Assembly (NCBI RefSeq): GCF_014174215.1
Contig: NZ_JABEQL010000005.1
Span: forward strand, 62,001-126,000
Reading direction: 5' to 3'
From: Gluconacetobacter tumulicola
Lineage (GTDB): Bacteria; Pseudomonadota; Alphaproteobacteria; Acetobacterales; Acetobacteraceae
DNA: 64,000 bases
The position numbers were made by a program, and so were the translations under genes. Of the stretch, positions 118 to 29,310 are shown one piece after another. Each line of letters begins with the position of its first letter. The first letter of the stretch is position 1. The notes below the pieces were generated by a model that was not told the DNA's origin, ran no database searches, and worked only from the letters and a program-made list of their open reading frames with translations.

Positions 118-295
118 CCCCCGAGGGCAAGCCCTCCTGGGGATGAGAATGAAAAGGTGCATCCATCACCGCGATTGCGGTGACCGTTCGCGGCCAGGAT
201 GCAAGGCGAACGAGTCGCGGTCAGCGCAGAGGACTGCGCCGTAGCCTTGAAGACCGGGGCTACCTGGGCATGTCGCCGACGACGTCGGCAGGCAT
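118..295 (-). ncRNA. Structured leader module, copy A
   Basis: Four consecutive hairpins plus a leader hairpin precede the partial gene at 1-81. On the plus strand: stem 1 GTAGCC/GGCTAC (241-246/258-263), stem 2 GCCGAC/GTCGGC (275-280/284-289), stem 3 GCGCAG/CTGCGC around AGGA (224-229/234-239), stem 4 GCATCC/GGATGC (159-164/197-202) enclosing a CACCGC/GCGGTG hairpin, and a leader hairpin at 118-142 (GAGGGC/GCCCTC). The order and loop types match copies B-E while the stem sequences differ, so pairing is conserved. The distal end overlaps the last codons of the DsbA-like gene. The functional strand is inferred from gene direction; the function is unknown. Confidence 0.6.
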
Positions 296-1024
296 TTCGG
301 ATGTGGGTGTGTTGGTCGAACCGTCAGCCGCCAGCATGTCCATGGCTGACAGCAAGGCATCGCCCTCGATCGGCCCCTGCAGCAGGATGGCCTGGCCCGT
401 CTGGCGATCGAGCAGGCGCAGTGATGGCGTGGCGGTTACGCCGCTCTTGGTGGCTTCCGCAGCCTGGGCGCGGATAGCCGCACTGGGTCTTTCGCTTGAC
501 ATGCACTGCTCGATGGCTGGCGTCGATTCGGGGTAGCGCAAGCCATCCGGCAAGCCCTGGCCGTCGCTGCGCGTGTGGGCATAGACCCATTCGACCGCCT
601 GCCAGAACGCGGCATGCCCGCCAGCTTCGGCTGCGCATTCGGCCAGACCTGCCTCGGCCGAGGCGGCCGGCTCGTGCGCGGCCAGCGGCTGGTGGTGCCA
701 TTGCAGCGCCACGTCGGCGTTGGAGCCCACCCACCGCTTGAGCTGCGGGAAATACTCCCGGCAGAACGGGCACTCCAGGTCAGCATAGAGCGTCAGCGTG
801 AAACGGCCTTTGGGGTTGCCCATTAGCCAGGGCGGCCCGGCCACCGGTGCCATGCTGACCGGCGTGGGCGGCTGCGGCGGGGATTCGCCGGGCGACCTCG
901 ACACAAGCCAGATCAGCAGCAGCGCGATCAGCACAGCAGCCAATGCCCAGGGCCAGCGGGGCCGCCCGTTGCGGCGGCGGAACGCCTGGACCTGCATCGG
1001 AATGGAAGGACGTTTCTGTTCCAT
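260..1024 (-). CDS. DsbA-like membrane-anchored thiol oxidoreductase of the ICE secretion cluster
   Basis: A 254-residue protein with one membrane segment (about residues 25-42), a proline-rich linker, and a periplasmic thioredoxin-fold domain with a CPFC active site (85-88) in the context typical of DsbA/DsbG-like proteins. Such genes accompany VirB4-type ATPase genes in PFGI-1-class ICEs and probably help disulfide formation in pilus or secretion components. It follows the ATPase gene by 13 bases. Start chosen at MEQKRP; the longer frame upstream overlaps the ATPase. The last dozen or so residues (reading EMPADVVGDMPR) are encoded by the dispersed hairpin module, and the stop lies inside its first stem, so this tail may be a by-product of module insertion. 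Confidence 0.8.
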   Translation of the reverse strand: MEQKRPSIPMQVQAFRRRNGRPRWPWALAAVLIALLLIWLVSRSPGESPPQPPTPVSMAPVAGPPWLMGNPKGRFTLTLYADLECPFCREYFPQLKRWVGSNADVALQWHHQPLAAHEPAASAEAGLAECAAEAGGHAAFWQAVEWVYAHTRSDGQGLPDGLRYPESTPAIEQCMSSERPSAAIRAQAAEATKSGVTATPSLRLLDRQTGQAILLQGPIEGDALLSAMDMLAADGSTNTPTSEMPADVVGDMPR

Positions 1025-1037
1025 GGCGTTCTCCGTC

Positions 1038-3905
1038 TTACGACAGTTCCAGGGCCGGCGACTCGATGCCGCGCGCCTGGTCGATCTTCTCGGCCACCTT
1101 GAAGGCCGCTTCCAGTTCGGTGCAGCCGTAGTGCTGCATAAGTTGGTAGCGTTCGGCCTTCTCTTCGGGTTCGGTTTGCGCGAGCGCAAGGTAGAGACTT
1201 GGCGGCACGGCGCGGAACAGCACTTCCATGCTCTTGGAGAGGATGACGCCCTCGGTGAATTTCCCCGCCTCCTTGCGAGCAGAAAGCATCAGCGCTTTCT
1301 GCGCGGGTGAGAGTTCGCGGAAGCGTGCGATCTTCTCGACCTCATCGGGCGGCATCGACAGGCAGATCCACCACTCAATCATGTTGAGCATGGGCTCCGC
1401 GGCACGTGGCAGATCGTCGATGTTTTGGGTCGCCAGCCAGAACCAGGCCCCTAGCTTGCGCCACATTTTTGTGATTTTTACGACGTAGGGTGCAAGCAGC
1501 GGGTTCTTGGTGATGATGTGGCCCTCGTCGGTCACATTGATGATCGGACGGCCCAGGTATTGGTCGCGCTCGGCGATGTTGTTCACCGTGCTGATCAGGC
1601 TGATGTACGCGATGGAGAGTTGCGCGTTGTAGCCCTCGCGCGCATAGGTCGCGAGATCCACCAGGGTGATGTCGGCTTCGGGCCACGGCGTGCCGTCGCG
1701 GTCGAACATCTCACCGTCCGTGCCTTGACAGAACATGTCCATGGCGTCCGCCATCTCCAGCAGCCTCACACGCCGCATCTCGGGCAGCGTGGGGTCCTGG
1801 CCGCGCGTGCGCAGCGCGTTGCGCACGTCGCGCGTGAGCACCGTGCGTTTCTCGGCCACGCAGTGCTCGGCGGCATCGAGGATGCACTGGCGGATCAGCG
1901 AGCGATCAGCCCGCGTCATCCGGGCTTCTTCTTTGTCCTCGCCGCCTGTGATCATCAGCCGTGCCGTGATCTCCAGTTCACCCAGCACGTCGCGCTGCTC
2001 GTCCTCCTCCATGATCGAGGAATCGGCTGGCAATTCTTCATCCAGTGCATCGGCGTCAAGCGTCTGCACGTTGCTGGGCGTTTCGATCAGCCGGCGAGCG
2101 TCGGCGAACGGCGCCAGGCTGATGCCTGAGCCAGGAGCCAGCTTGACCCGGTTCACGGTCAGACCCAGGCGCTTTGCGAAGTCGCTGAACAAGCCGAAGC
2201 TGTTGCCGGCTTCCACGATGAACAGCCGCGGCCGGTAGATGGCCGTAACCTGGTTCAGGAGGTTGTTGAGCGTTGCGCTCTTGCCCGAGCCGGTGGGGCC
2301 GAACAGGAACAGATGGGCGTTCATCTGCCTGTCCAAGCGGTTCAGTGGATCAAACGTGATCGGCCCGCCGCCGCGGTTGAAGAACGTGTTGCCCGGATGA
2401 CCCGTACCCTGGCTGCGACCCCACGCCGGCGAGAGATTCGCCACATGCTGGGCGAACATCAGTTGGGTGAACCAGTTCCGTCGATCTTGCGCAGGGTTGT
2501 AGCAGCACGGTAGCCAGCGCAGGTAGCTGTTGAGCGGCGCGACTTCATCGTCCTCGCGCACAGGCTGCAACCCCGCGTTGAGCATCACGTTGGCGAGGTC
2601 CAGGCCGCGCCTGTCAAGTTCGGCTTCATCGCGTCCGCGCAGATAGAAGGCCAGCGTGCCGCGGTAGAGCTTGTGCGCGCTGCCGATGAGCGAGCGCGCC
2701 TCCTGCACATCCTTGAGCGTTTGTTCCGATGCCAGTGTTTCGCCGACAGCCTTCTTCGCCAGGTGGTTCAGGTGCGATTCGAGGATGTCCTGGGGCGTCG
2801 CCACCATGGTCAGACACATCGTGGTGTCTTCGGGCATCTGATCGAAAAGCGTGTTGATAGCGTCCCCCTTGCGGGTTTCGCCGGTCAGGTGCCCCGTACC
2901 GGGCGGCATGCGTAGCCGGTCGGTGACCAGTACGCGATGCGGCATGCCGTCGAAGTACCAGGTGCCGTGCTCGGCATCGGAGCGAGGCTGACCGAAGAAC
3001 AGCCGTTGACTGAAATCCCGACCACTCGCCAGCTCGATCTCACCTTCCTCCACCTCGTCGGGATAGCGGGCCAGCGCATAGAAGCGCTCTCGCTCCTCAG
3101 CGCCGGGCCCGAGCATCGTGGGGCGTGGGTTGAACCAACGAAGCAGCCAGTCGTGAACATCGGCCGCGACCATGCGCCGGGCCTGGATGCCGGCGTTCGC
3201 CAGGCCGCCGCAGAGGCGATCGCAGACGATGTTCAGCATTTGCTCGGGTGTCTGGCCGCGGCGGTTCGCCTGCCCGGTGGCCCGGCGATAGACCACCATG
3301 CGCACGCGCCGCGTCTGGCCGCGCCAGCGCAACCGCGTGACCACCGTGTCCTCGAACAGTCCGCCCGGTTTGGCCACTGCGCGCAGGTGGTGGCCGAAGA
3401 AGCGGAGGTAGAACTCGGTGAAGGCGGTATCGCGGGCACGCGGCTGCACGTAGTCGCGCAGCGTCTGCATGTACTGGTCGAAGCTGGGCTCGTCCTGTGC
3501 ATAGAGCTGGAGCACCCACGGGTTCTCATCCAGCTCATCGAACGAGTCCTGGAGCGCGTTTTCGAGCGCATCGCGGGCATGCGCGAGCCAGCCCGGCTCC
3601 CGACCTTCGGTGCCTAGCGGGACCAGTTCGTAGAAGGCCGCGACCGATTGCCCGTCCTCCAGCAGCATGGACTTCGACGGTGGCAGGAACTCCACCCACG
3701 GCAGCAGCTCCGCGAATGACTGCGCAACGTCGTACAACGCCTGCTCGTCCGCCACGGTCGCCGGCCTGCGGCCCTGGACCGTCGCTCCGGGTTCGGCAAT
3801 GCCGGCCTGGCGCAACGCCTCGACGTGGCGCTGCCAGCCGTCCGGCTGCTCGTCATTGCCACCATCGGATGCAGCCAGCTTCGGCCAGGGAAGTTTCCAG
3901 CGCAT
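1038..3905 (-). CDS. VirB4/TraC-like conjugative transfer ATPase (PFL_4706 family)
   Basis: A 955-residue cytoplasmic ATPase that energises assembly of the type IV secretion channel. A Walker A motif (GPTGSGKS) lies near residue 535 and a VTDEGH Walker B-like stretch follows in the C-terminal half. Length and surrounding genes fit the PFGI-1-class conjugative ATPase family (TIGR03744 as I recall it). The ATG overlaps the stop of the lipoprotein gene (TGATG), which indicates translational coupling in the transfer operon. The reading frame is intact. Confidence 0.92.
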   Translation of the reverse strand: MRWKLPWPKLAASDGGNDEQPDGWQRHVEALRQAGIAEPGATVQGRRPATVADEQALYDVAQSFAELLPWVEFLPPSKSMLLEDGQSVAAFYELVPLGTEGREPGWLAHARDALENALQDSFDELDENPWVLQLYAQDEPSFDQYMQTLRDYVQPRARDTAFTEFYLRFFGHHLRAVAKPGGLFEDTVVTRLRWRGQTRRVRMVVYRRATGQANRRGQTPEQMLNIVCDRLCGGLANAGIQARRMVAADVHDWLLRWFNPRPTMLGPGAEERERFYALARYPDEVEEGEIELASGRDFSQRLFFGQPRSDAEHGTWYFDGMPHRVLVTDRLRMPPGTGHLTGETRKGDAINTLFDQMPEDTTMCLTMVATPQDILESHLNHLAKKAVGETLASEQTLKDVQEARSLIGSAHKLYRGTLAFYLRGRDEAELDRRGLDLANVMLNAGLQPVREDDEVAPLNSYLRWLPCCYNPAQDRRNWFTQLMFAQHVANLSPAWGRSQGTGHPGNTFFNRGGGPITFDPLNRLDRQMNAHLFLFGPTGSGKSATLNNLLNQVTAIYRPRLFIVEAGNSFGLFSDFAKRLGLTVNRVKLAPGSGISLAPFADARRLIETPSNVQTLDADALDEELPADSSIMEEDEQRDVLGELEITARLMITGGEDKEEARMTRADRSLIRQCILDAAEHCVAEKRTVLTRDVRNALRTRGQDPTLPEMRRVRLLEMADAMDMFCQGTDGEMFDRDGTPWPEADITLVDLATYAREGYNAQLSIAYISLISTVNNIAERDQYLGRPIINVTDEGHIITKNPLLAPYVVKITKMWRKLGAWFWLATQNIDDLPRAAEPMLNMIEWWICLSMPPDEVEKIARFRELSPAQKALMLSARKEAGKFTEGVILSKSMEVLFRAVPPSLYLALAQTEPEEKAERYQLMQHYGCTELEAAFKVAEKIDQARGIESPALELS

Positions 3906-4345
3906 CAGTAGTTCTCCACGCGCTCGCCCGGCATGGCGTACTGCACACGCTGGTACAGGGGGAAGACCGTCGTGTAGCCCGGAACCGGCACGGGATCGGT
4001 GCCCGCCAGGTGCGGGTACACATACATGACAAGATCGGGGTTCGGCAGGCGGTGGAACTGGCGATAGACCTCGTTGCGCGCCGTGCGCGTGTAGCGCATC
4101 TGCTCGGTGGGCGCGGCCTCCACGTCGGCCTCGGTCAGCGGCCGGCGCAGGCTCTGGCGTGCATCGAGCAATTGCCTGCGCGCCACCTGGCCGGCGCCAC
4201 CACCCCCGTCACCGGCGTTCTGCTGCCAGATGTCCATCATCGTGCTGTCGCCGTGGGGGAGCAGCTTTTCCTTGCTGGTGGCACAGCCGCCGAGCACCGC
4301 GACGGCGAGGGCCAGCGCCAGGGCCTTATTCAAGTTCGAGAGCAT
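3905..4345 (-). CDS. ICE conjugal transfer lipoprotein (TIGR03751 type)
   Basis: A 146-residue protein with a lipoprotein signal ending in the lipobox-like LGGC (Cys about residue 21), a glycine-rich stretch, and a C-terminal region ending MPGERVENY. Position between the TraB-like gene and the VirB4-like ATPase matches the small transfer lipoprotein of PFGI-1-class elements, likely a VirB7-like outer-membrane channel component. Start chosen at MLSNLNKA because it gives a complete signal peptide; it overlaps the preceding gene by 20 bases. Confidence 0.85.
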   Translation of the reverse strand: MLSNLNKALALALAVAVLGGCATSKEKLLPHGDSTMMDIWQQNAGDGGGGAGQVARRQLLDARQSLRRPLTEADVEAAPTEQMRYTRTARNEVYRQFHRLPNPDLVMYVYPHLAGTDPVPVPGYTTVFPLYQRVQYAMPGERVENY

Positions 4346-5756
4346 GGCTTTCTCCTGCGCGGTGATCGACCTTGCGGCCTTCGGGATCGAAGTCGATGGC
4401 GAGAGGCTTTTCGAGGTGGACGGCGACCTTCGCGCCGGGCTGGACATAGATAGCGGCGAACGCCTGGCCATACAGCTTGTTCACCCAGTCGGCCATGTCG
4501 CGCACGCCACCGGCCAGGATGCGGCCCACGGCTTCATTGCCCGAGATACCGACGCTGCCGATGGAGCCGTCGGCGCCGACGTAGGACATCTGGCCGCTGT
4601 CGCTGTCGATCAGCGAGGCGACGCCGGCACCGGCGGCGGTAATCAGGGCTTGCGAGCCAAGGTACTGCTGGGCGTTGCTGCGCCGCTCCCCGCTGACGCA
4701 GGGAATGCCGTATGGGTCGCTGATCCAGCCCAGGCCTCCACTTTGAGAGTTCTGCTGCTGGTTGTTCTGCTGGTTGCCGTCGCGGTCTTCGGGGATGGTG
4801 CGGATCGTGCCGTCGTGGAAGACGAAGGTGATGCTGCGTACCTGGCCGCGCACGCACGAGAGCGTCCAGTCGCCCGATGCGGTGCCGCTGAACACGGCAC
4901 CGGCCACGTCGGGAATGTCGATGCCATTGGCGGTCAGGTTGTCCGATCCGACCAACACCTTGAAGGGGTACGGATCGTTGACGGTTCCGTCGATCGGCAC
5001 GCGGCCGATCAGCGCCGTCATCGCCACCGACCCCATCAGCGTCGAATTGGTCGGTACGGTATAGACCGCCTTGGCGCTCTTCACGCCTGCGGCGCGTGCG
5101 CCCGCGTTCGCCACGGTTTCCGCCGTGGCTTCCAACGTGCTCTGCGCGGGGCCGAAGCTCGTCGGGAAGCTCATGCCGCTACCCGTGCCACGACTGCTGT
5201 TGCGCCCCTCGACTTTCCTCGCATCGTCGGGTTCGACCCAGCGCACGCCGCCTTCCATGCTGGCCTCGTCGCCGTCACGCAGCCCCAGACCCACCGGCAG
5301 GTCGGCATGGCCGCCGCCACGTCCGCCGATACTGTCCAAGCGCCGTTGCAGGTCGGCAAGCAGCCCTTCGGTCTGCTGGCGCGCGCTGGCTGCCTGCTCT
5401 TGGTCGCGACGCAGGTTGGTGCGCTCGGAGTCGAGGGCCGAATTGATGCGCTGGTCAATGGAGTTCTCGCGCTGGCGCAGTCGCTGGTTTTCTTCGCGCT
5501 GGGATTTGTTGTCCGAGAGCGCGGTCTGAAGCTCGGTGCGCAACTGCTTCACTTGGGCAACGAGCGTCGCCACGGTGTCGCGCGGGGTATCGCCCTCGAT
5601 GCCCAGCGCCTTCATTTCCGCTGGAGTGAGCTTGGCGCCGGCATCCGCGGTCGGTGGTGCCGAAGTGCTGCCACCCGAGAACAGCCGGATGCCGACGAAC
5701 AGCACCAGCACGGCAACCGGGATCATCAGCCACTTCAGGAGTCCATTACTGCGCAT
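4326..5756 (-). CDS. TraB/VirB10-like ICE channel protein (TIGR03752 type)
   Basis: A 476-residue bitopic inner-membrane protein: N-terminal membrane segment (about 8-26), a long heptad-rich coiled coil (about 60-150), then a periplasmic domain with the VPTNSTLMGSV and DWTLSC regions expected of TraB-like proteins spanning to the outer membrane. It belongs to the MPF-G transfer operon and overlaps its upstream neighbour by 11 bases, which supports the start at MRSNGLLK. Role: core channel scaffold linking inner and outer membrane parts. Confidence 0.88.
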   Translation of the reverse strand: MRSNGLLKWLMIPVAVLVLFVGIRLFSGGSTSAPPTADAGAKLTPAEMKALGIEGDTPRDTVATLVAQVKQLRTELQTALSDNKSQREENQRLRQRENSIDQRINSALDSERTNLRRDQEQAASARQQTEGLLADLQRRLDSIGGRGGGHADLPVGLGLRDGDEASMEGGVRWVEPDDARKVEGRNSSRGTGSGMSFPTSFGPAQSTLEATAETVANAGARAAGVKSAKAVYTVPTNSTLMGSVAMTALIGRVPIDGTVNDPYPFKVLVGSDNLTANGIDIPDVAGAVFSGTASGDWTLSCVRGQVRSITFVFHDGTIRTIPEDRDGNQQNNQQQNSQSGGLGWISDPYGIPCVSGERRSNAQQYLGSQALITAAGAGVASLIDSDSGQMSYVGADGSIGSVGISGNEAVGRILAGGVRDMADWVNKLYGQAFAAIYVQPGAKVAVHLEKPLAIDFDPEGRKVDHRAGESHALELE

Positions 5757-6672
5757 GGCGGACCTCCTTGCGGTCGGTGCCATCCTGGGAACTGGCTTCC
5801 GGTTGCGGGAGATGCACGGCCGGGTCGAAGCGGTTGACCGCTGGTAGCAGCGATTGCGCCAGGCCACGCCCGCGCGTCACCAGGTACAGGACGGTCGTGT
5901 CCTCGGGCGTCCCGCGCGGGCCAAGCGCCTCGTGTTGGAAGGTGGCGGTGAGGAAATCGCCTTGCAGCACGCGCGGGTCCAGGGTAATCCAGCCGCTGCT
6001 GCTGTTGGTCAGGCGCACGGCGGTCACCCACTGGTCTTCCAGACGCCACGACGCGAGCGCGACCGCGCGCACGGGCAGCGTCGGCATCAGCGTGCCGAGG
6101 TCGAGGTCACGGCGCAGGTTTACCCGCATGACGCTCGGCAGCGGCTCCACTGTGCGTAGCGGCGCGTAGAGGTTCTGTGCGGCGAAGCGCGTCAGGACAA
6201 CCGGCACCGGGGTCTCGCGTCGCGCCGCTCGCGCGCCGGCCTGGTCCTGGGCGCGCGCCGGAGCTTCGTTGTCATCGCCGGGCTGATCGCCATAGCGCGC
6301 CGGGGTGCTGTTGCCCTCGACGATGCGCACTGGTTCCAGCTCGGCTTCCCCGTCCTTGGCTGGTTCCGCCGCAATGTCCAGCAGGATCAGCGCGCCCGTG
6401 TCGGCGTCCTGCAATTGCAGCCGCGTGGGTTCGATCGGCTCGCTGGCGCGCAGGTACACCGCACCGCCCGCGCTCTGCACCCGCAGGCGCTCGCCGACGC
6501 CCGCGGGCACGCCCACGCGGACGTTGCGGTCGATAAACACGATGCGCTCCTGGCCGACCTTCAGCGGCACCGCCAGCGGCATGCGTTCCCAGCGCAGGAT
6601 CTCCACCGCCTGGACAGCGGGAGCCGCGGCCACTGCCAACAGCCCCAGCAAAGTGAGTACAGGATGCTTCAT
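5746..6672 (-). CDS. TraK/VirB9-like ICE protein (TIGR03749 type)
   Basis: A 308-residue secreted protein with a signal peptide ending near AVQAVE (about residue 23), then beta-rich periplasmic sequence. Position and length match the TIGR03749 family, a TraK/VirB9-like part of the outer-membrane core complex. The start overlaps the stop of the TIGR03746-type gene by four bases (ATGA). Family placement rests on gene order and remembered sequence similarity. Confidence 0.85.
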   Translation of the reverse strand: MKHPVLTLLGLLAVAAAPAVQAVEILRWERMPLAVPLKVGQERIVFIDRNVRVGVPAGVGERLRVQSAGGAVYLRASEPIEPTRLQLQDADTGALILLDIAAEPAKDGEAELEPVRIVEGNSTPARYGDQPGDDNEAPARAQDQAGARAARRETPVPVVLTRFAAQNLYAPLRTVEPLPSVMRVNLRRDLDLGTLMPTLPVRAVALASWRLEDQWVTAVRLTNSSSGWITLDPRVLQGDFLTATFQHEALGPRGTPEDTTVLYLVTRGRGLAQSLLPAVNRFDPAVHLPQPEASSQDGTDRKEVRHAQ

Positions 6673-21839: not shown

Positions 21840-21840
21840 G

Positions 21841-21899
21841 ATGGAGACCTCCAAAAAGGAGCCGAGGCCTCCCCCGCATGGGGAAGGAACCCCGGCGGG
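21841..21899 (-). promoter_or_regulatory. Leader hairpins before gene 21513-21839
   Basis: Distal hairpin CCCGC ... GGGG-aaggaa-CCCC ... GCGGG (21872-21899) and a short CTCC/GGAG pair over the Shine-Dalgarno (21849-21861). Confidence 0.5.
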
Positions 21900-21933
21900 T
21901 GGATGAAGGACACCGCGGATGCGGCGCCCATGG

Positions 21934-22626: not shown

Positions 22627-22648
22627 GATGCTTCTCCTTGAGAAATAG

Positions 22649-22680
22649 GAAAAAGGCAAGGCCCCGTGAGGGGCCATGCC
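22649..22680 (-). terminator. Terminator after DUF3577 gene, doubling as DUF3275 leader
   Basis: Minus-strand arms GGCATGGCCCC / GGGGCCTTGCC around TCAC, then TTTTTCC. It begins three bases after the DUF3577 stop and ends about 23 bases before the DUF3275 ATG. Confidence 0.85.
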
Positions 22681-22683
22681 GGA

Positions 22684-23601
22684 TCAGAACGAAGCAGCCA
22701 ATGCTGGCTCCTGCTCCTCGACTTCACCTGCGGGCTCGCGCTCGGCGGACTCGGCAGGCTGCTCGGCAGCGGTGTCGGCAGCGTCCTCGGCTTCGGGCGC
22801 GGATGCGTCCTGGGCCTGCGGTGCCTCGGCTTGCGCCTGGCTCGTGGGATAGACCTGGGTGCCATCGATCTTGATCAGACCGATGTGGACCAGCGTCGAT
22901 TCCAGACTCGCGGCCGGTTCCCCGGCGTGCTCCCCCTTGGTGCGGATGTACGGATCGATCTTCATGTCGTTCAGACGGAAGGCGACCAGCACTTTGCGAT
23001 CCGCTTCGATGGCCTGCACGCACCGGCGAACCAGGTGCTCGGCTTCAGGGGTGGCGACGATCGTGTCGAAATACCGATACTCCGGTTCATCGACAGGGCC
23101 GGTCAGCGCTGCGATGCAGCACGACAGGAAGGGATCACCGTCTTTGGGAGTGACGTCCTTCGGGCGGCTGAGGTAGCCGATGCCGCGGGTGATCAGCTCG
23201 TGCTGCTTGATCGAGGCCAGTTCGGCCCGGTCAATCAGTTCGGTCTTGAGCAGCCGGGCCTTGAGAGACCCGCCTACTTCGCCCTTGCGTTCACCCTTGT
23301 CGCGGATGAAGGGATCGGCGCGCAGATCGCCAGTGCGGAAGCGCACCAGTGGGCGCTGCTTGGGATCGTCAACGCCGATGTAGCGCTGGACGAGCTTCTT
23401 GGCCTCGGCACCCGAGACTTTGACGTCGAAGTAGCGGTAGCTGGGGTCCCTGGCAGGGCCGACCAGCGCGGCGATGGTGCATGCCAGGAAAGGCTGCGCT
23501 CGGCGGCCGCCCCTGACGGGCACTTCACGGACACGCTGGATGTAGCCGATGCCCGAAGTGTGGAGGTCGAAATACGATTTCTCGTTTGAAGTGGTGTTCA
23601 T
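22684..23601 (-). CDS. STY4534-type (DUF3577) ICE replication protein with a tandem domain
   Basis: A 305-residue protein with two copies of one domain. GIGYIQRVREVPV ... FLACTIAALVGP ... YRYFDVKVS ... DPFIRDKGER (about 17-110) repeats as GIGYLSRPKDVTP ... FLSCCIAALTGP ... YRYFDTIVA ... DPYIRTKGEH (about 138-230), followed by an acidic Ala/Glu-rich tail. The family is annotated as an ICE replication protein (STY4534-like); biochemical function unproven. Start at MNTTSNEK, seven bases after GGAGA. Copy B of the structured module lies directly upstream. Confidence 0.83.
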   Translation of the reverse strand: MNTTSNEKSYFDLHTSGIGYIQRVREVPVRGGRRAQPFLACTIAALVGPARDPSYRYFDVKVSGAEAKKLVQRYIGVDDPKQRPLVRFRTGDLRADPFIRDKGERKGEVGGSLKARLLKTELIDRAELASIKQHELITRGIGYLSRPKDVTPKDGDPFLSCCIAALTGPVDEPEYRYFDTIVATPEAEHLVRRCVQAIEADRKVLVAFRLNDMKIDPYIRTKGEHAGEPAASLESTLVHIGLIKIDGTQVYPTSQAQAEAPQAQDASAPEAEDAADTAAEQPAESAEREPAGEVEEQEPALAASF

Positions 23602-23638
23602 GGTGAATCTCCATAGGGATGAAGCGGAGACACACCAG

Positions 23639-23820
23639 CCCACGCATGCGGGGAGAGGTGCGTAACCCCGCGGTGGGTTGATAAGGCGAAAGCATCCGCC
23701 ACCAGAGACTGGTGGCCGCTCGCGGAGGGATGCTGTGCGAGCTGGCACGGTCACGCAGTGGGAACTGCGCTGCAACCTCGAAGACCGATGGTTGCCTGGC
23801 ATGTCGCTGACGACGTCAGC
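23639..23820 (-). ncRNA. Structured leader module, copy B
   Basis: Upstream of the DUF3577 gene. On the plus strand: stem 1 GCAACC/GGTTGC (23772-23777/23790-23795), stem 2 GCTGACG-A-CGTCAGC (23806-23820), stem 3 CGCAGT-GGGA-ACTGCG (23754-23769), stem 4 GCATCC/GGATGC (23692-23697/23728-23733) around CCACCA/TGGTGG, then a leader hairpin CCCAC ... GTGGG with inner GCGGGG/CCCCGC (23639-23677). Each stem occupies the same place as in copy A with compensating base changes. Confidence 0.62.
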
Positions 23821-23916
23821 AGGCATGGGGTCAGCATGGCCGGGCCTCGCGCGTGCGACAGCAATCAATCGGCATCCGGGCGCTTCCCATTTTTTCCAGG
23901 CTGCCCAGTACCGCCC

Positions 23917-23944
23917 AAAAAGAAGCCCCCAAAATGGGGGCTTC
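23917..23944 (-). terminator. Intrinsic terminator after the DUF3085 gene
   Basis: Minus-strand GAAGCCCCC-ATTTT-GGGGGCTTC followed by TTTTT, 24 bases past the stop. Confidence 0.9.
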
Positions 23945-23967
23945 AAAGGGTATGCGGACATTTTTGA

Positions 23968-24321
23968 CTACGCCGATTCCACCGCCGCCAGTGACAGATG
24001 CGTAGCGGTGGCGGACAGCTCCAGATCATCTGAGCTTTGCAGAATGCGAGTGAAAACGCTGTCTTTCGGGTCGAAGAACTCGCCGAAGTCGTCGCCTCCA
24101 AGTTCGGCGCGTGCCAGTTCCCACCAGTCATCGAACGGGTCGGTATCCGGGTTGCAGCCGACGGCATAGGCCAGCAGCTTCACGCGGCCATCGGGGCGGC
24201 GCTCTCCGCGCTCGGCGAGGAAGTACACGCCCTGGTCTTTGGCCAGGACGACGCGGCATTGGTTGGCGATGGCCTCGGCAAGCACGGGGCGCAGGTCGGA
24301 GCCTCTGAATCGCAGTGACAT
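23968..24321 (-). CDS. DUF3085-family protein
   Basis: A 117-residue protein beginning MSLRFRGSDLRPVLAEAIA; GVYFLAERGERRPDGRVKLLAYAVGCNP and DPFDDWW match the DUF3085 family found in ICE and plasmid accessory regions. No enzymatic motif. It is a single-gene unit: a leader hairpin/terminator upstream and a strong terminator downstream. Confidence 0.82.
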   Translation of the reverse strand: MSLRFRGSDLRPVLAEAIANQCRVVLAKDQGVYFLAERGERRPDGRVKLLAYAVGCNPDTDPFDDWWELARAELGGDDFGEFFDPKDSVFTRILQSSDDLELSATATHLSLAAVESA

Positions 24322-24346
24322 GGTTGAAATCTCCTGTATGGATGAA

Positions 24347-24379
24347 GAAAAAGCCCTCCACCCAAACGGATGGAAGGCT
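24347..24379 (-). promoter_or_regulatory. Terminator-like leader hairpin before DUF3085 gene
   Basis: Minus-strand AGCCTTCCATCC / GGGTGGAGGGCT (imperfect) with TTTTTC after it, about 25 bases before the start codon. Confidence 0.6.
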
Positions 24380-24444
24380 TGTGGGGCAGTCGCCGGTAGG
24401 CTATGGACTGGTCAGTCGTGCCGCTGGGCTTCCTGTCTGGCATG

Positions 24445-25257
24445 TCAGGCTGGAACCGCCTGACGTCGCCGAGGAGCTTTGGCGTCGATCACGCTGACGT
24501 CGATCAGGCGCCAGCTCCCGTCGTCGATGAGCCGCTCTAGCACGTCACCGAGCATGTCGAAATACACCTCGTCGTGCCGATCGATCAATTCACCGTCGCG
24601 ATGCAGCTCCACCACGTAGGTGTCGCCGCCACGGTCGTAGAGGATCGTCACCTGACCCTCGAACTTGGTGGTTGAAACCGTGAAGCTGATCGCCGGCGGG
24701 GTCTCGATGATCTTGGAGGGCTTGGGATCGACCCAGACGAAGTCGCGGGCACCTGCATCGACCAGCATGTGGGTGATGCACCGGAACCCGTCGGGCGCGG
24801 GCATCTCCTCCAACTGCTCGATGAGTTGGCCCAGTTCCATGCACTGCGGCTCGGGAATGGGCAGCTTGGCGGGCGCTTTGCCGAGGATATGCCTCGTGAT
24901 GGTGTAAGGCGTGCCATCCGAAGTCTTCTCGGTGACGACTTCCGGGGTGTCCGCGCGCAGGCCGTCGAAACGGCGCCGTGCGTAGGGCTGGACATGCACC
25001 TTGGCGCCCTCGCTGGGAACGGTGGTGACCAGGCTGGGGTCGAGCACCGCGAACTCGCTGGGCTTGAGCTTGACGACGATGGCATCGTCATTCGCCGCGA
25101 CCACCTTGCCGTCGAAGGGTTGGGGATCGATGGCGAAGCCCAGCGTCGAGGATTGCGGCTGATCATCGAACACGCGGTACTTGAACGACCGCACGTTGCG
25201 GGGCACATGGCCTGCGACAAGCGAAGGCATCAGGGTCTTGATGAGAGAGCGATCCAT
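24445..25257 (-). CDS. Hypothetical ICE accessory protein
   Basis: A 270-residue soluble protein beginning MDRSLIKTLMPSLVAGHVP, with a beta-rich N-terminal half (AIVVKLKPSEFAVLDPSL) and a C-terminal segment ending in basic APRRRQAVPA. I do not recognise the family. Start at MDRSLI is fixed by AAGGAG. The leader can pair GGGAATC-CCTTG with CAAGG-GATTCCC across the Shine-Dalgarno, and module copy D lies upstream. Confidence 0.72.
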   Translation of the reverse strand: MDRSLIKTLMPSLVAGHVPRNVRSFKYRVFDDQPQSSTLGFAIDPQPFDGKVVAANDDAIVVKLKPSEFAVLDPSLVTTVPSEGAKVHVQPYARRRFDGLRADTPEVVTEKTSDGTPYTITRHILGKAPAKLPIPEPQCMELGQLIEQLEEMPAPDGFRCITHMLVDAGARDFVWVDPKPSKIIETPPAISFTVSTTKFEGQVTILYDRGGDTYVVELHRDGELIDRHDEVYFDMLGDVLERLIDDGSWRLIDVSVIDAKAPRRRQAVPA

Positions 25258-25428
25258 GGGAATCTCCTTGAGAAAGAACAAGGGATTCCCCGTCCACAAG
25301 GGAGAGGTCCCTTGTGGGTGGATGGACGCTGTACGTCCGTAGGAAGAATCGACCAGCACGGTGTCCCGCACTTGCAGCCTTGAAGGCCTCGGCTGCCAGG
25401 GCATGTGTCGGCAACGCCGACGAACATG
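25258..25428 (-). ncRNA. Structured leader module, copy D, with SD-sequestering stem
   Basis: On the plus strand: stem 1 GCAGCC/GGCTGC (25374-25379/25391-25396); stem 2 GTCGGC-AAC-GCCGAC (25407-25421) extended by CATGT/ACATG; hairpin GGACG/CGTCC (25324-25338) in the place of stem 4; leader hairpin CCACAAGGGA/TCCCTTGTGG (25294-25317); and a proximal helix (25258-25270 with 25279-25290) burying the Shine-Dalgarno AAGGAG. Stem 3 is weak here. Confidence 0.6.
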
Positions 25429-25510
25429 GAGCAAGGATGGCTCTGAAATGGGCGGCCTGCCCGCAAGAAATCGCACAGCGTCGCACCCGCTTTCCAGTGC
25501 TTCGGACAAG

Positions 25511-25533
25511 AAAAAGCCCCTCGAAAGGGGCTT
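25511..25533 (-). terminator. Intrinsic terminator after gene 25541-25819
   Basis: Minus-strand AAGCCCC-TTTCGA-GGGGCTT followed by TTTCTTG, eight bases past the stop. Confidence 0.85.
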
Positions 25534-25540
25534 GGTTGGG

Positions 25541-25819
25541 TCAGGCTTCGTACACGAAGTAGTGTTCTCGCTGACGTGGGAAGAAGACATGTTTCCATGT
25601 ATCGCCGCTGGTGTTGCCACCGTCGAAGACGACCATTTCGTAGTCGTCAATGTCGGTGTCCACCAGTTCGGCGCTGGCGACATGGCGCATGTGCAGCGTG
25701 CCGCTCATGCGCTTGAATACCAGGATCTGGCCGATGGCGTCGTCCTGGCCCATGGCATTGACGCAGGAACCGAGCTGGTACTCGAAGTCGGACGTGCTAG
25801 GGATGAGGTCGGGTAACAT
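25541..25819 (-). CDS. Small acidic hypothetical protein
   Basis: A 92-residue acidic protein (MLPDLIPSTSDFEYQ ... FFPRQREHYFVYEA). A short predicted-beta protein with no motif I know. It has its own leader hairpin (25843-25873) and terminator (25511-25533). Start supported by AGGAG nine bases upstream. Confidence 0.7.
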   Translation of the reverse strand: MLPDLIPSTSDFEYQLGSCVNAMGQDDAIGQILVFKRMSGTLHMRHVASAELVDTDIDDYEMVVFDGGNTSGDTWKHVFFPRQREHYFVYEA

Positions 25820-25842
25820 GAGGTTGCTCCTATGAAAATGAA

Positions 25843-25873
25843 CCAGCCCGGCTCCGGGAGGGAGACGGGCTGG
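25843..25873 (-). promoter_or_regulatory. Leader hairpin before gene 25541-25819
   Basis: Arms CCAGCCCG / CGGGCTGG followed on the minus strand by TTCATTTTC and AGGAG. Confidence 0.6.
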
Positions 25874-25915
25874 TATGGGGAGAACAAAGAGGAAGGATGT
25901 TGTGTCGCGTGGCTG

Positions 25916-26653
25916 CTAGGACTCGGCCAACGGCAGGCCCAACAGCACGGGTGCGTCGGCGTCGAGAATCAGGATGCGCACATCGGCTTGGCCAGCCAGT
26001 TCAATGACGTTCGCCAGGTCATCCGGCATACCCTTGCTTCGGTGCTCCTGGCGAAGCTGCTCCGCACTGATCCCCTCGACGTGCTCCAGGTTCTTGTCCG
26101 TCCAGGGGGTGGAGATCAGCTTGATGCCGATCGCCGGGCTGTAAGGAACCCGAAACGCGATGAACAGGAATGCCTCCGGCGTGGCGAGGTCTGCCAGGTT
26201 GGCGAGGTATTGGCCGGTTTCCTCGCTTATGTGTGCACTGCTGATTTCCCAGCACCGGCTGTAGTAGCCGGTCTCGAAACTCAGGCGCTGCACGACTTCC
26301 CGTGCAGCTTCAGCCGAATAGGTGTCGCCGACGTGGACGGGGCGGCCGTCGAAGTCATCGCCATGGATGGCATAGACCACGGCGCCGATTACGCCTTCGC
26401 CGCTGACACCTTCACCGGCATCGCATTCGGCCAGCACCTCGGCACTCACGGGTTCGGGACCATTCCTGACCACGGCGAAATCGCTTGTGACGATGCACGA
26501 GGATGAAATCAGCTCCTCGTCGGAAAAGTGCTGTTGGCTGGCGTGGATGATTCGCCAGACATGCGGGCTTCCGTCGTCGTAGCCGATGCACAGCGTGCGG
26601 ACGATTTTCAGATTCCAGTAGCCGCGGAGAAAGGGATTGGGTTTCAGGGACAT
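25916..26653 (-). CDS. DUF5983-like ICE accessory protein
   Basis: A 245-residue acidic soluble protein beginning MSLKPNPFLRGYWNLKIVRTL. The N-terminal part (CIGYDDGSPHVWRIIHASQQHF) resembles the DUF5983 family recorded in ICE accessory regions (from memory). No catalytic motif seen. Start at MSLKPN behind GGAG; a leader hairpin at 26692-26714 and a TGGAG/CTCCA pair over the Shine-Dalgarno precede it. Confidence 0.7.
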   Translation of the reverse strand: MSLKPNPFLRGYWNLKIVRTLCIGYDDGSPHVWRIIHASQQHFSDEELISSSCIVTSDFAVVRNGPEPVSAEVLAECDAGEGVSGEGVIGAVVYAIHGDDFDGRPVHVGDTYSAEAAREVVQRLSFETGYYSRCWEISSAHISEETGQYLANLADLATPEAFLFIAFRVPYSPAIGIKLISTPWTDKNLEHVEGISAEQLRQEHRSKGMPDDLANVIELAGQADVRILILDADAPVLLGLPLAES

Positions 26654-26660
26654 GGGAACT

Positions 26661-26714
26661 CTCCAGAATTGAATAATGGAGCCAATCCCCGCCACCGGGA
26701 ATTGGACCCGGTGG
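26661..26714 (-). promoter_or_regulatory. Leader hairpins before gene 25916-26653
   Basis: CCACCGGG/CCCGGTGG hairpin (26692-26714) and CTCCA/TGGAG (26661-26665/26677-26681) covering the Shine-Dalgarno. Confidence 0.55.
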
Positions 26715-26733
26715 GTTGAAAGTGGAAAATGCG

Positions 26734-27420
26734 TCAGTCGGCGCTGATCGTTGGCGTCTGGGCCAGCCGTTCGGCGATGCGATGGCGCACATTCAGGCGG
26801 AAATGCTCGTCGGTGATGCCGGCAAGCAGGTTGGCGGCCTCCAGCGCGATCAATGCCGAGGCCTCTTCGATGTCGGTGGCCACGATGGTCTTGCGCAGTT
26901 GGTCGCCGAGTTGGAGTGCCTGCGAGGACGTTCTGAAGACCTGGGCCTCGCGGCTCAGGTAGCAGCCGTTGCCGCCGAACTCGAACAGCCTCGGTTTGCT
27001 GCAATGCCAGCAACCCTCGAACTGGATGGCGGTCAGGTGATGACCGTCATCGAGGCAGGAGGCGATCAGAAACAAGGCTTCCAGGTCGGCGCTGTCCTCG
27101 AACTGGTGGTGCTCGATGAGGTTCTCCAGCTCTCCGTCCTGGTCAGCACCGAAGTGCGCGGCCAGCCGTTCAAGCAGAGGTGGAATCGACAGTTCTTCGT
27201 CGTCGGGCATGGGGATGCCGAGTTGTGTGGCCAGGTCTTCCAGGCCATCCAGCACATCCGTCCAGCGCGGGTCATTGGTCTCGGCGATCTGGGCGATGTA
27301 AGCCTGCCCATTGCCGGGATGGTTTTCATCCAGCGCAAAGGCGCCGAACAGCGCCTTGATGACGGGAGTAACGCGGTCGAGCACGAGAACGCCCGTGCCT
27401 TCGTAGTAGTTGTTTGCCAT
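26734..27420 (-). CDS. Hypothetical ICE accessory protein
   Basis: A 228-residue acidic protein beginning MANNYYEGTGVLVLDRVTP, helical through the middle (WTDVLDGLEDLATQLG) with a CWHC pair (about residue 138). I do not recognise its family. Start at MANNYY with AAGGAG upstream. Its leader (about 27435-27485) has a GCGGA/TCCGC hairpin. Confidence 0.72.
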   Translation of the reverse strand: MANNYYEGTGVLVLDRVTPVIKALFGAFALDENHPGNGQAYIAQIAETNDPRWTDVLDGLEDLATQLGIPMPDDEELSIPPLLERLAAHFGADQDGELENLIEHHQFEDSADLEALFLIASCLDDGHHLTAIQFEGCWHCSKPRLFEFGGNGCYLSREAQVFRTSSQALQLGDQLRKTIVATDIEEASALIALEAANLLAGITDEHFRLNVRHRIAERLAQTPTISAD

Positions 27421-27515
27421 GGTGGCTCCTTTCGGGGAAGTGAGCGGAGCCAGCCCGTGCGGACGATGGCATCCGCGGGAATAGCCCAAGGCCGTTGGCG
27501 CCGGGCGATGGGTAA

Positions 27516-27555
27516 GAAAAATTGAGGGACATGGCCTCATGGGCGCATGTCCCTC
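27516..27555 (-). terminator. Intrinsic terminator after gene 27595-27987
   Basis: Minus-strand GAGGGACATG / CATGTCCCTC around a 12-base loop, followed by AATTTTTC, about 40 bases past the stop. Confidence 0.85.
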
Positions 27556-27594
27556 ACGTGGGATCGAGAGGACAGTGGCGTGCCGGAGACCGGC

Positions 27595-27987
27595 TCACCA
27601 ACCGCTGTAGTTCACCAGCAGGTCGGCGATGACCTTGCGGCGTTCCAGGTCGAGACCGTCGAAGTCCGACAGCCCGTCGAAGTGGCAGCGCTTGAGCATG
27701 GCGCCGCCCTCGCGCGCGTTGTAGAAGCTGACCATGGCGGACAGGAACATGCGTTCGCCGCTGCTCAGGACGCCGAGGGCATCGTTGAGCCGCAGCATGT
27801 CGGGACGCAGATCCCACTTGGTGTTGGCCTGGTTCAGACCTTCACGGGTGCCGTCGCCGAACCATTCGGGGCCAGCGATCTCGACACCGCGCTTCCAGGC
27901 CTCGAAGAAGGCTTGGGGCGCGGCAGCGAAATGCTGCTCTTCCCGCATGATCTGATCGACGACTTCCTGTGGCAGAAGTTGATTCAT
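27595..27987 (-). CDS. Hypothetical ICE accessory protein
   Basis: A 130-residue helical protein starting MNQLLPQEVVDQIMREEQHF. It lies 21 bases after the gene at 28009-28221 with GGAGG before its ATG, so the two form a bicistronic unit sharing the copy C leader. Similar proteins occur in ICE accessory blocks; function unknown. Confidence 0.72.
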   Translation of the reverse strand: MNQLLPQEVVDQIMREEQHFAAAPQAFFEAWKRGVEIAGPEWFGDGTREGLNQANTKWDLRPDMLRLNDALGVLSSGERMFLSAMVSFYNAREGGAMLKRCHFDGLSDFDGLDLERRKVIADLLVNYSGW

Positions 27988-28008
27988 GACGTGATTCCTC
28001 CAGTTGGA

Positions 28009-28221
28009 TCAGGGAATGGCGAGCTGGGACCAGCCGCCTCTTTCGAGGGCGCGTTGAGCCGCGGCATAGCTGCGGAAGTACTCGCGGGATTCCCGCGAAA
28101 CAGGACCTTCGGTATCGCGCGTGCCGATGTAGTGGCCGGCGGCGCTTTGCAGGACTTCGAGCGGCAGGAACTTGCCGCAGTAGGTCGAGGCCAATTGGCC
28201 GAAATAGGCTTGCTGGGACAT
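28009..28221 (-). CDS. Small hypothetical protein
   Basis: A 70-residue protein, MSQQAYFGQLASTY ... ERGGWSQLAIP. The longer frame is not used: AAGGAGC lies just before this ATG and the extension runs through the structured leader. Upstream is module copy C. Probably co-transcribed with the following gene. Function unknown. Confidence 0.65.
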   Translation of the reverse strand: MSQQAYFGQLASTYCGKFLPLEVLQSAAGHYIGTRDTEGPVSRESREYFRSYAAAQRALERGGWSQLAIP

Positions 28222-28240
28222 GGACGGGCTCCTTGGAAAA

Positions 28241-28420
28241 GCGGGGCCTTGTCCCTCACGGGATGGAAGCTCCCGCACGCGGTTGATAAAAAGCATCAGC
28301 GTCACAAGGACGCTCATCCGCAGAATTGATGCGATGCGGACTGGTGGGTGACGCGGGAGAGACCCGCGGCAGCCTGGAACCCTGGCTGCTGGCATGTGCT
28401 GACGAATCAGCGAACATGCC
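28241..28420 (-). ncRNA. Structured leader module, copy C
   Basis: On the plus strand: stem 1 GCAGCC/GGCTGC (28369-28374/28384-28389); stem 2 GGCATGT-GCTGA-CGAA-TCAGC-GA-ACATGCC (28391-28420), the longest version; stem 3 CGCGGG/CCCGCG (28352-28357/28363-28368); stem 4 region with AGCGTC/GACGCT inside GCATC/GATGC (28293-28337); leader hairpin with GCGGG/CCCGC arms (28241-28276). Confidence 0.62.
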
Positions 28421-28493
28421 GGCAGCTTCCTGCGAGGGCCATGCAGCGTCAGTTGGAAAACGGCATCCGACCCAGCCCCGATTGATGTGCGCA

Positions 28494-28525
28494 GAAAAGA
28501 AAAGCCCCGCATCGAGTGCGGGGCT
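28494..28525 (-). terminator. Intrinsic terminator after gene 28551-29108
   Basis: Minus-strand AGCCCCGCA-CTCGA-TGCGGGGCT followed by TTTCTTTTC. Confidence 0.88.
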
Positions 28526-28550
28526 GTCAGGAGGGTGCGTTGACGCTGGC

Positions 28551-29108
28551 TCAGTTGGGCTTGTCGCCCAGGACATGCTGCTTCCACAGGACGAATGCCT
28601 CGTCCGGTTCCAGCTCGGCGAGGATGACGATGGGCTGGTCCTGCCGGGCGCGCAACGCAGCGAAATACGTCTTGCGGTCGGCGATGGCTTTGAGCTTGAT
28701 GCCCTTGAGAAACTTCAGCTTGCCGTCCTTCACGAACAGCACCCTGTTGCCGACATCTCGATTGAACGCGGTTCGCACCTTACGCTCCGCGCGCATAACG
28801 GCGGCCAGCTCATCGACCAGGAAGTCGAGCGTCATGTCGATGTAATGGGGGTCTTCACCCTCTTGGCCGAGATCGAGAGGCGCAGGCGGCAGTTCCTTGG
28901 CGAAGGCTTCGGCCTGAGCCAGCAGCGTCGTCTTGCCGTTGAGCGCGCGGAGGAATGTCGAGCCGCCATGCCCGTCGTTGCGGGCCTCGGCGATGGGAGT
29001 GCCGTCGAACACGACGGTCGCGGTGAAGCACAGCGTTTCCTCGCTGGCGAAGTCGGCGACCTTGAGGTTCTTCAGCATGATGCGGTCTTGCTTGGTGATG
29101 GTGTCCAT
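28551..29108 (-). CDS. Hypothetical ICE accessory protein
   Basis: A 185-residue protein beginning MDTITKQDRIMLKNLKVADF. The sequence ATVVFDGTPIAEARNDGHGG and the charged C-terminus match a family often seen next to methylase and ssb/topB genes in ICEs (recalled without a name). Start at MDTITK lies downstream of module copy E; a spaced AGGAC is the only Shine-Dalgarno candidate. It ends with a strong terminator. Confidence 0.7.
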   Translation of the reverse strand: MDTITKQDRIMLKNLKVADFASEETLCFTATVVFDGTPIAEARNDGHGGSTFLRALNGKTTLLAQAEAFAKELPPAPLDLGQEGEDPHYIDMTLDFLVDELAAVMRAERKVRTAFNRDVGNRVLFVKDGKLKFLKGIKLKAIADRKTYFAALRARQDQPIVILAELEPDEAFVLWKQHVLGDKPN

Positions 29109-29147
29109 GGAAAGTCCTGAAATCGACCGGGTGGCGACATGCCCCTG

Positions 29148-29310
29148 ACGGGACGTGGCGACCATCCCGTGGGTTGGAGAAAGGAGGCATCGATGCCCCG
29201 GTGGGCAGCGTTCGCCGGTGAGATGCCGAAGCGAACTGACGGGTGGCGTGGGCGGAACCCACGGCAGCCTTGACACCCTGGCTGCGGGCTGCTGCCGATA
29301 CATCGGCAAT
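29148..29310 (-). ncRNA. Structured leader module, copy E
   Basis: On the plus strand: stem 1 GCAGCC/GGCTGC (29264-29269/29280-29285), stem 2 TGCCGAT-AC-ATCGGCA (29293-29308), stem 3 CGTGGG-CGGAA-CCCACG (29247-29263), stem 4 GGCATC/GATGCC (29186-29191/29222-29227) and leader hairpin ACGGGA/TCCCGT (29148-29170). It sits between the C5 methyltransferase and the gene at 28551-29108. Confidence 0.6.

What the first reader, a model, noticed from the sequence alone, without database searches (positions are those of the whole stretch)
118..29310. Five dispersed copies of a multi-hairpin module with co-varying stems
Copies A (118-295), D (25258-25428), B (23639-23820), C (28241-28420) and E (29148-29310) share an ordered series of hairpins in intergenic DNA upstream of unrelated genes. 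Stem 1 is GTAGCC/GGCTAC, GCAACC/GGTTGC or GCAGCC/GGCTGC; stem 2 is GCCGAC/GTCGGC, GCTGAC/GTCAGC, GTCGGC/GCCGAC, GCTGA/TCAGC or TGCCGAT/ATCGGCA; stem 3 is GCGCAG/CTGCGC, CGCAGT/ACTGCG, CGCGGG/CCCGCG or CGTGGG/CCCACG around short purine-rich loops. Both strands of each stem change together, which is the mark of selection on structure. It may be an RNA regulator family, a protein-binding RNA, or a DNA-hairpin signal; it may also match an already catalogued motif.
Basis: partly seen in the sequence, partly recalled or inferred. Interest (0 to 1): 0.8.

Follow-up and report, generated by a model that had tools for sequence, protein, structure and literature searches.

The report
Five radC leader RNAs in ICE
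The five repeated hairpin modules are copies of a catalogued but unexplained RNA (radC RNA, Rfam RF01754); comparing many relatives suggests that it starts at the first base of messages of a conjugative element and is often followed by a hairpin that hides the ribosome-binding site, so its function can now be tested directly.

Summary
Observation confirmed. All five copies are radC RNA (RF01754; 137, 120, 99, 83, 69 bits; cut-off 40) on the MINUS strand of an ICEclc/SPI-7-type element, the only copies found in the genome. I found no assigned function in print. A model search gave 205 hits in the window and 128 loci. (1) Covariation: 36 of 40 pairs change on both sides, 0 of 500 shuffles as high; two pseudoknots lie outside the nested Rfam structure. 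(2) G·U exceeds A·C 89 to 23: the transcript strand is functional. (3) Promoter elements at fixed distance put transcription start at the RNA's first base. (4) A hairpin pairing the ribosome-binding site follows: 45 of 54 leaders, 18 of 91 control genes, 21 of 25 later loci. Best explanation: a cis-acting leader that holds translation of transfer genes low until a signal refolds it; signal unknown. Against one mechanism for all: island-type copies lack this hairpin beside the RNA, and window copies C and E do not show it clearly. Known family; new functional anatomy.

The parts
158..309 (-). copy A, radC RNA with both pseudoknots, upstream of RadC gene; overlaps 3' end of DsbA-like reading frame
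   Evidence: RF01754 136.9 bits; R1 136.7 bits
82..157 (-). copy A platform: hairpin P6 (GGAGGGC/GCCCUC) and SD-pairing hairpin P7 up to the ATG at 81-79
   Evidence: fold
1..81 (-). RadC-domain gene, first 27 codons (continues left of the window; L134:6587-7081)
   Evidence: PF04002 E 8e-41
23691..23840 (-). copy B, radC RNA with both pseudoknots
   Evidence: RF01754 120.1 bits; R1 127.6 bits
23602..23690 (-). copy B platform P6 and P7 (UCUCC/GGAGA next to the ATG)
   Evidence: fold
22684..23601 (-). DUF3577 / STY4534-family ICE protein, two matched stretches; a relative is predicted as an SSB-like OB fold
23857..23890 (-). conserved upstream dyad of copy B (site score 21.2)
23922..23944 (-). 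terminator-like hairpin of the preceding unit
25282..25441 (-). copy D, radC RNA (class II: 3' pseudoknot domain replaced by a simple hairpin; the match runs into the platform)
   Evidence: RF01754 99.3 bits; R1 57.5 bits; no P4/pseudoknot beta found
25258..25320 (-). copy D platform: CAAGGGA/UCCCUUG hairpin and SD hairpin UCCCUUG/CAAGGAG
   Evidence: fold
24445..25257 (-). 270-aa protein of unknown family downstream of copy D
   Evidence: no Pfam or NCBIfam match; relatives in cluster 2
25458..25491 (-). conserved upstream dyad of copy D (score 16.9)
25514..25533 (-). terminator-like hairpin of the preceding unit
28292..28431 (-). copy C, radC RNA with both pseudoknots
   Evidence: RF01754 83.0 bits
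28222..28291 (-). copy C leader to the ATG; SD hairpin weak here, strong in relatives
28009..28221 (-). 70-aa protein of unknown family downstream of copy C
28448..28481 (-). conserved upstream dyad of copy C (score 23.7)
28503..28525 (-). terminator-like hairpin of the preceding unit
29186..29328 (-). copy E, radC RNA with both pseudoknots
   Evidence: RF01754 69.0 bits
29109..29185 (-). copy E leader; SD hairpin not clearly predicted
28551..29108 (-). 185-aa protein of unknown family downstream of copy E
29344..29377 (-). possible dyad of copy E; score 13.3 is no higher than other window sites (13.5, 13.3, 13.0)
35643..35676 (-). the same dyad without a radC RNA, before an AcaB-family gene (34807-35586); boxes that follow align with the mapped ICEclc inrR promoter
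   Evidence: score 22.9; PF08900; sequence

Best explanation
The five modules are members of the radC RNA family (shown) and act in cis as leaders of transfer-related genes of an ICE. Transcription of the stand-alone copies starts at the first base of helix P1 (inferred from promoter geometry). The RNA folds into stems P1-P5 with two pseudoknots: alpha, the P2 loop with the stretch after P3; beta, the P4 loop with the 3' end (shown by covariation; copy D lacks beta). In ICE-type copies it is followed by hairpin P6 and by hairpin P7, which pairs the ribosome-binding site just before the AUG, so the default state has translation low (inferred from folding and comparison). The 5' strand of P6 can instead pair with the 5' strand of P7, which would free the ribosome-binding site (supported by complementarity, not shown). 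The pseudoknotted domain most likely senses something present during transfer or recipient entry, a small molecule or a host protein, and sets this balance for several unlinked genes at once (inferred).
For: RF01754 membership of all five. Covariation: 40 pairs, 95.1% of 4164 cells paired, 36 pairs with double changes, 0 of 500 shuffles as high; slid controls 23-44% paired. Pseudoknot alpha alone: 5 of 5 pairs with double changes, 86.2% paired; mean duplex 4.78 against at most 4.22 in 1000 re-pairings. Pseudoknot beta: at least 5 bp in 49 of 49 non-redundant sequences that keep P4, with GCAUC/GAUGC, GCACC/GGUGC, GCAUUC/GAAUGC. In 39 matches of loci fetched later: alpha at least 4 bp in 38, beta at least 6 bp in 35, with new forms such as AGCUUC/GAAGCA. 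Transcript strand: G·U 89, A·C 23 cells, p 2e-10. Start: dyad 48-52 bases before the model start in 54 of 66 non-RadC upstreams, shuffled 7 of 15000; in the later loci the -10 ends 5-7 bases before P1 in 15 of the 19 upstreams (of 37) with a strong sigma-70-like site. Platform: SD hairpin in 45 of 54 leaders, 803 of 2700 shuffles, 18 of 91 other genes (p 3e-14), 21 of 25 later leaders. P6/P7 alternative pairing 6.36, swapped mean 5.44, maximum 5.81 of 500. Terminator-like hairpins lie before copies B, C, D.
Against: No ligand, protein or expression datum. SD pairing alone is only modestly above shuffles in this GC-rich DNA (0.86 against 0.77). The sequences are related, so shuffle counts are not probabilities; the later set was not made non-redundant and includes near-copies of copy A. 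Window copy E lacks a clear P7 and copy C has a weak one. Island-type copies have no P6/P7 next to the RNA, so this platform cannot be the whole family's mechanism. RadC-type copies such as A have no dyad at the fixed place (0 of 9) and A lies inside an operon. Only three of the 39 later matches have the dyad there.
Confidence: 0.62

Rival explanations
1. The motif acts as single-stranded DNA: a Frpo/ssi-like promoter or priming site of the transferred strand that lets early genes be read in the recipient (Frpo/ssi features recalled, not looked up).
For: Targets include genes of DNA handling (RadC, an SSB-like protein), and the copies share one orientation. Weinberg et al. raise ssDNA for the similar STAXI motif.
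Against: G·U exceeds A·C on the transcript strand, while a hairpin of the complementary template strand would predict the reverse. Promoter elements lie upstream of, not within, the structure. Pseudoknots and the SD hairpin have no role in this model.
Confidence: 0.07
2. Autogenous control: the SSB-like DUF3577 protein (gene B) binds the pseudoknotted leaders, including its own, and represses translation until ssDNA titrates it away, as T4 gp32 does on its pseudoknot leader (gp32 analogy recalled, not looked up).
For: DUF3577 is the commonest target (54 of 191 called genes); the predicted fold of a relative is SSB-like, with modest scores. Four of four ICE-type genomes of the genus tested have it.
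Against: 0 of 16 genomes that I took as having only island-type copies have DUF3577 (seven of them were seen to hold island-type copies). Two E. coli stretches of SPI-7-like ICEs have the protein but no radC RNA. It could hold only for ICE-type copies.
Confidence: 0.12
3. Processive antitermination or transcript protection: the RNA at the 5' end modifies RNA polymerase or shields long transcripts from decay.
For: The RNA is predicted to start at +1. ICEclc ORF81655 heads a long transcript (14.5 kb by the authors' reading) and is among the most abundant.
Against: Copies B, C and D are each preceded by a terminator-like hairpin of the unit before, so the units are closed off by terminators rather than read through. 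The SD hairpin next to the AUG is unexplained.
Confidence: 0.12

Closest known systems
radC RNA, Rfam RF01754 (Weinberg et al. 2010, PMC2864571)
   Same: All five copies match over the whole model; placed before RadC and other genes
   Different: Two pseudoknots, the P6/P7 platform and the promoter geometry are not in the nested Rfam structure printed; copy D has a reduced 3' domain. Whether the published drawing shows pseudoknots could not be checked
Translational riboswitches (general class, recalled)
   Same: Pseudoknotted conserved domain followed by mutually exclusive hairpins, one covering the SD
   Different: No ligand known; targets are mobile-element genes, not a metabolic pathway
STAXI motif (Weinberg et al. 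2010, one section read)
   Same: Pseudoknot RNA near SSB, topoisomerase and antirestriction genes
   Different: Tandem repeats of one pseudoknot; no such match in the window at the cut-off
BisDC-dependent transfer-competence promoters of ICEclc (PMC9286271)
   Same: Same element family; my dyad also marks the inrR-type promoter of the window
   Different: The section and passages I read describe transcription; no leader RNA is mentioned in them

Membership tests
radC RNA RF01754 | covariance-model score at or above gathering (40 bits) | tested here: met
   69-137 bits, five of five
radC RNA RF01754 | upstream of RadC / DNA-related genes in Proteobacteria | tested here: met
   RadC for A and DUF3577 (SSB-like model) for B; C, D, E precede genes of unknown family
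radC RNA RF01754 | complete 3' domain | tested here: inconclusive
   copies A, B, C, E keep P4 and both pseudoknots; copy D has a simple hairpin instead
translational riboswitch | expression platform with mutually exclusive pairings that involve the SD | tested here: inconclusive
   P7 45/54 and alternative pairing above swap control; not clear for window copies C and E; no probing
translational riboswitch | direct binding of a ligand | not testable with these tools
   needs in-line probing or binding assays
Frpo/ssi-type single-stranded promoter | functional hairpin in the transferred (template) strand | tested here: not met
   G·U 89 against A·C 23 favours the transcript strand
Frpo/ssi-type single-stranded promoter | -10/-35 inside the hairpin | tested here: not met
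   promoter elements upstream of P1
STAXI RNA | match to its model | tested here: not met
   the gathering-level scan of the window gave only RF01754 and RF02227
gp32-like autogenous control by DUF3577 | protein present wherever the RNA is kept | tested here: not met
   0 of 16 genomes taken as island-type only, 4 of 4 ICE-type, 0 of 6 without radC RNA

The most novel reading that the evidence does not exclude
radC RNA is an unrecognised riboswitch-like sensor, for a small molecule or a host factor, that mobile elements of Proteobacteria use as a common post-transcriptional gate on transfer and integration genes, with several copies per element forming one regulon.
Probability: 0.3. Interest if true: 0.8.

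Novelty: new member of a known kind. Interest (0 to 1): 0.48.

Why it matters
The radC RNA has been listed since 2010, and I found no assigned role. The anatomy here (start at P1, two pseudoknots, SD hairpin with a competing strand) gives exact, cheap tests, and would add a post-transcriptional layer to the transfer-competence programme of ICEclc-type elements, which spread catabolic and resistance genes. The ICEclc authors already suspected extra post-transcriptional control of ORF81655, which by spacing is the DUF3577 gene that carries copy B here.

Tried and rejected
Considered and dropped: ssDNA promoter (G·U/A·C test); DUF3577 as the universal binding protein; antitermination as the main role (terminator layout); CsrA as regulator (a csrA gene lies on one plasmid; I saw no GGA-loop sites, but this was not tested). 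Phage records gave no match to copy A. A paper search on radC, Rfam, genomic island and cis-regulatory gave 31 papers, 15 listed, of which only PMC2864571 was opened. The MOB/oriT layout was not worked out.

Rows dropped before counts: the 10 lowest of the 160 matches were not in alignment A3, so 195 of 205 were parsed; 27 hits in eight gene clusters with unreliable start calls, and any leader without an SD motif or over 80% like another, were left out of the leader tests; one of the 54 leaders gave no P6 and was left out of the alternative-pairing test; four weakly paired columns were left out of the G·U/A·C count; of 134 control genes two failed a start check and 91 had an SD motif. Pseudoknot beta was counted only in sequences that keep P4, 49 of 69. 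In the later set 14 of 39 matches had no usable start call (ATG with SD within 150 bases) or were tagged island type, and the set was not made non-redundant.

Full report
WHAT IS THERE. The window lies on contig C5 of a 4.29 Mb genome. It holds the core of an ICE of the ICEclc/SPI-7/PFGI-1 kind: conjugative ATPase traC_PFL_4706, TraD and PilL homologues, topoisomerase III, an AcaB-family protein, DUF3577 and DUF3275 proteins. All five reported modules match RF01754 'radC RNA' on the minus strand. Whole-genome searches with Rfam's model and with my own found only these five. For A, B, C and E a start codon follows on the minus strand 70-89 bases beyond the match of my model; for D that match already runs into the platform and 24 bases remain.

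HOMOLOGUES. A model built from 26 sequences found 205 matches in the window and 128 loci. RF01754 was present in 5 of 299 genomes drawn from the phylum and 2 of 385 from the class, the window's own genome counted in both, and in 134 of 249 genomes of one unnamed genus (I take it for Pseudomonas, which no call states). By blastn copy A matched 8 plasmid records and no phage record; copy E matched 130 plasmid records.

STRUCTURE. On 112 distinct rows of alignment A3, 40 proposed pairs form in 95.1% of cells, 36 pairs have changes on both sides, and none of 500 shuffles comes near. A3 was fitted to the nested stems, which favours them; pseudoknot alpha was not part of that fit and still pairs in 86.2% of cells with double changes in all 5 pairs. 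Its two strands change together widely: CGAUC with GAUCG, CGGUC with GACCG, GACC with GGUC, GGGUG with CACCC (copy E), CAGACC with GGUCUG. Pseudoknot beta, the P4 loop with the 3' end, was likewise outside the fit. Loci fetched later agree for both, with forms not seen before. The loss of P4 and beta in copy D and its relatives defines a second class. Rfam's printed consensus structure carries neither of the two pseudoknots; such models cannot hold them. I did not see the supplementary drawing of PMC2864571.

STRAND. In 66 non-redundant rows, G·U cells outnumber A·C cells 89 to 23 on the transcript strand. Selection on the complementary DNA strand would show the opposite.

PROMOTER. A blind motif search in 75 non-redundant upstream regions found a dyad, about AA..GG-N11-TGCCGATT, whose best site lies 48-52 bases before the model start in 54 of 66 non-RadC upstreams and in 0 of 9 RadC-type ones; shuffled sequences gave 7 of 15000. 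The motif was learned on these same sequences, so the fixed position is the stronger part. In the window it is clear for B, D and C; the site of E (13.3) is no better than unrelated window sites. Just before P1 there is a -10-like CANNCT with about six bases to P1. Lineages without the dyad have TTGACA-like boxes: in the later set 19 of 37 upstreams had a strong site, and in 15 of these the -10 ends 5-7 bases before P1; only three of the 39 later matches have the dyad at that place. The dyad also occurs at window 35643-35676 before the AcaB-family gene, where TTGACT and TGCCGAAGCT follow. For ICEclc, Gaillard et al. (PMC2892462, section 8 read) mapped the inrR transcript to a T 25 bases before ORF95213 with -35 TTGACT and -10 TGTCGATCCT; these align with the window boxes and put the start about 7 bases after the hexamer. 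Sulser et al. (PMC9286271, section 6 and passages) report a shared motif in eight of nine bimodal promoters; their figure was not available, so identity with my dyad is an inference.

LINK TO ICEclc. ICEclc ORF names are coordinates (recalled). ORF81655 is among the most abundant core transcripts, gave no 5'-RACE product, and gave a weak primer-extension product about 250 bases before its start. The leader predicted for copy B is about 227 bases. The authors also note that reporter and read levels for ORF81655 disagree and suggest post-transcriptional control. They found no depletion of reads upstream of ORF58432 and only weak promoter activity there, which fits a copy inside an operon.

PLATFORM. 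Between the RNA and the AUG there is hairpin P6, then P7, whose 3' strand holds the SD and ends within five bases of the AUG. It meets set criteria in 45 of 54 non-redundant leaders, in 803 of 2700 shuffled versions, and in 18 of 91 SD-bearing genes without radC RNA from stretches of three radC-bearing plasmids, cargo genes included. In loci fetched later it holds in 21 of 25, not made non-redundant. The sequences of P7 differ between gene families (GGUGUGUCUCC/GGAGAUUCACC, GGAGCCUCC/GGAGGUUCC, GGGAAUCCCUUG/CAAGGAGAUUCCC). SD pairing probability itself is 0.86 against 0.77 in shuffles, a small gain; the pairing of the spacer, 0.68 against 0.45, is the clearer signal. The P6 5' strand matches the P7 5' strand better than swapped partners do, 6.36 against a maximum of 5.81 in 500 swaps, 53 leaders. 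In the window P7 is clear for A, B and D, weak for C, and not clear for E.

TARGETS. Of 195 parsed hits 191 have a called downstream gene: DUF3577 54, RadC 38, the 270-aa D family 33, an unnamed family of about 215 aa 20, and smaller groups, some with uncertain starts. An AlphaFold model of a DUF3577 relative (183 residues, mean pLDDT 73, core over 90) has an OB-like strand order, and Foldseek ranks single-strand-binding proteins high with modest scores (best E 5e-4 is an RNA-editing complex chain, next 3e-3 an SSB; TM-scores about 0.3 on the query). The D model was poor (mean pLDDT 62) and was not searched.

EXCEPTIONS. In the unnamed genus many copies sit between a tRNA-linked integrase and a second integrase-like gene, with a conserved stretch of about 550 bases after the RNA and no P6/P7 beside it. 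Sixteen genomes that I picked as carrying only such copies have no DUF3577, against 4 of 4 ICE-type genomes and 0 of 6 without radC RNA; seven of the 16 were seen to hold island-type copies, the other nine were picked by match number and score alone. Two E. coli stretches with the same ICE core show no radC RNA but have a different leader with similar-looking hairpins before the DUF3577 gene. So the radC domain and the SD hairpin are separable modules.

VERDICT. The new part is a coherent, testable mechanism for the ICE-type copies. The input signal is not identified. No printed role was found in searches for 'radC motif' with RNA, 'radC RNA', 'RF01754', and ICE with RadC and riboswitch; most subscription papers, and preprints, are not in the library. 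Papers seen: PMC2864571 (passages and one section), PMC9286271 (outline with abstract, one section, passages), PMC2892462 (outline with abstract, one section, passages), PMC7423338 (one passage), PMC13393423 and PMC13098234 (listing and a term search with no hits).

Noticed in passing
window 29115-29904: A stretch with the 3' part of the cytosine methylase gene and the whole of copy E, ending just before the E gene's start, is about 91% identical to DNA in some 130 enterobacterial plasmid records; in the two looked at (IncC) it lies between a class 1 integron region and an endonuclease III gene next to rmtC. The RNA has travelled without its gene.
   Followed up: partly
L182-L193, L195, L196, L198-L201 (18 stretches of an unnamed genus): Solo radC RNA followed by about 550 conserved bases with a long GCGCCCGUCUCUUU/AAAGAGACGGGCGC hairpin; in several stretches between a tRNA-linked integrase and an Integrase_1-like gene. 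May be a leader or an independent RNA.
   Followed up: partly
L150:14700-14982 and L151:14700-14982: E. coli SPI-7-like ICEs have a structured leader before the STY4534 gene, partly conserved between the two, with hairpins like P6/P7 but no radC RNA; no Rfam match around it in L150.
   Followed up: partly
window 35643-35676 (-): Promoter dyad shared with the radC leaders before an AcaB-family gene; candidate BisDC site.
   Followed up: partly
L163, L166, L167, L179: Three radC RNAs within about 1.5-2.7 kb in each: dense arrays of the leader, several before small genes.
   Followed up: no
window 42313-42394 (+): Rfam sX8 sRNA (RF02227) match, 68.3 bits, above its cut-off of 50.
   Followed up: no
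L148:37766-37963: A csrA gene among the transfer genes of an Enterobacter plasmid stretch that carries four radC RNAs.
   Followed up: no
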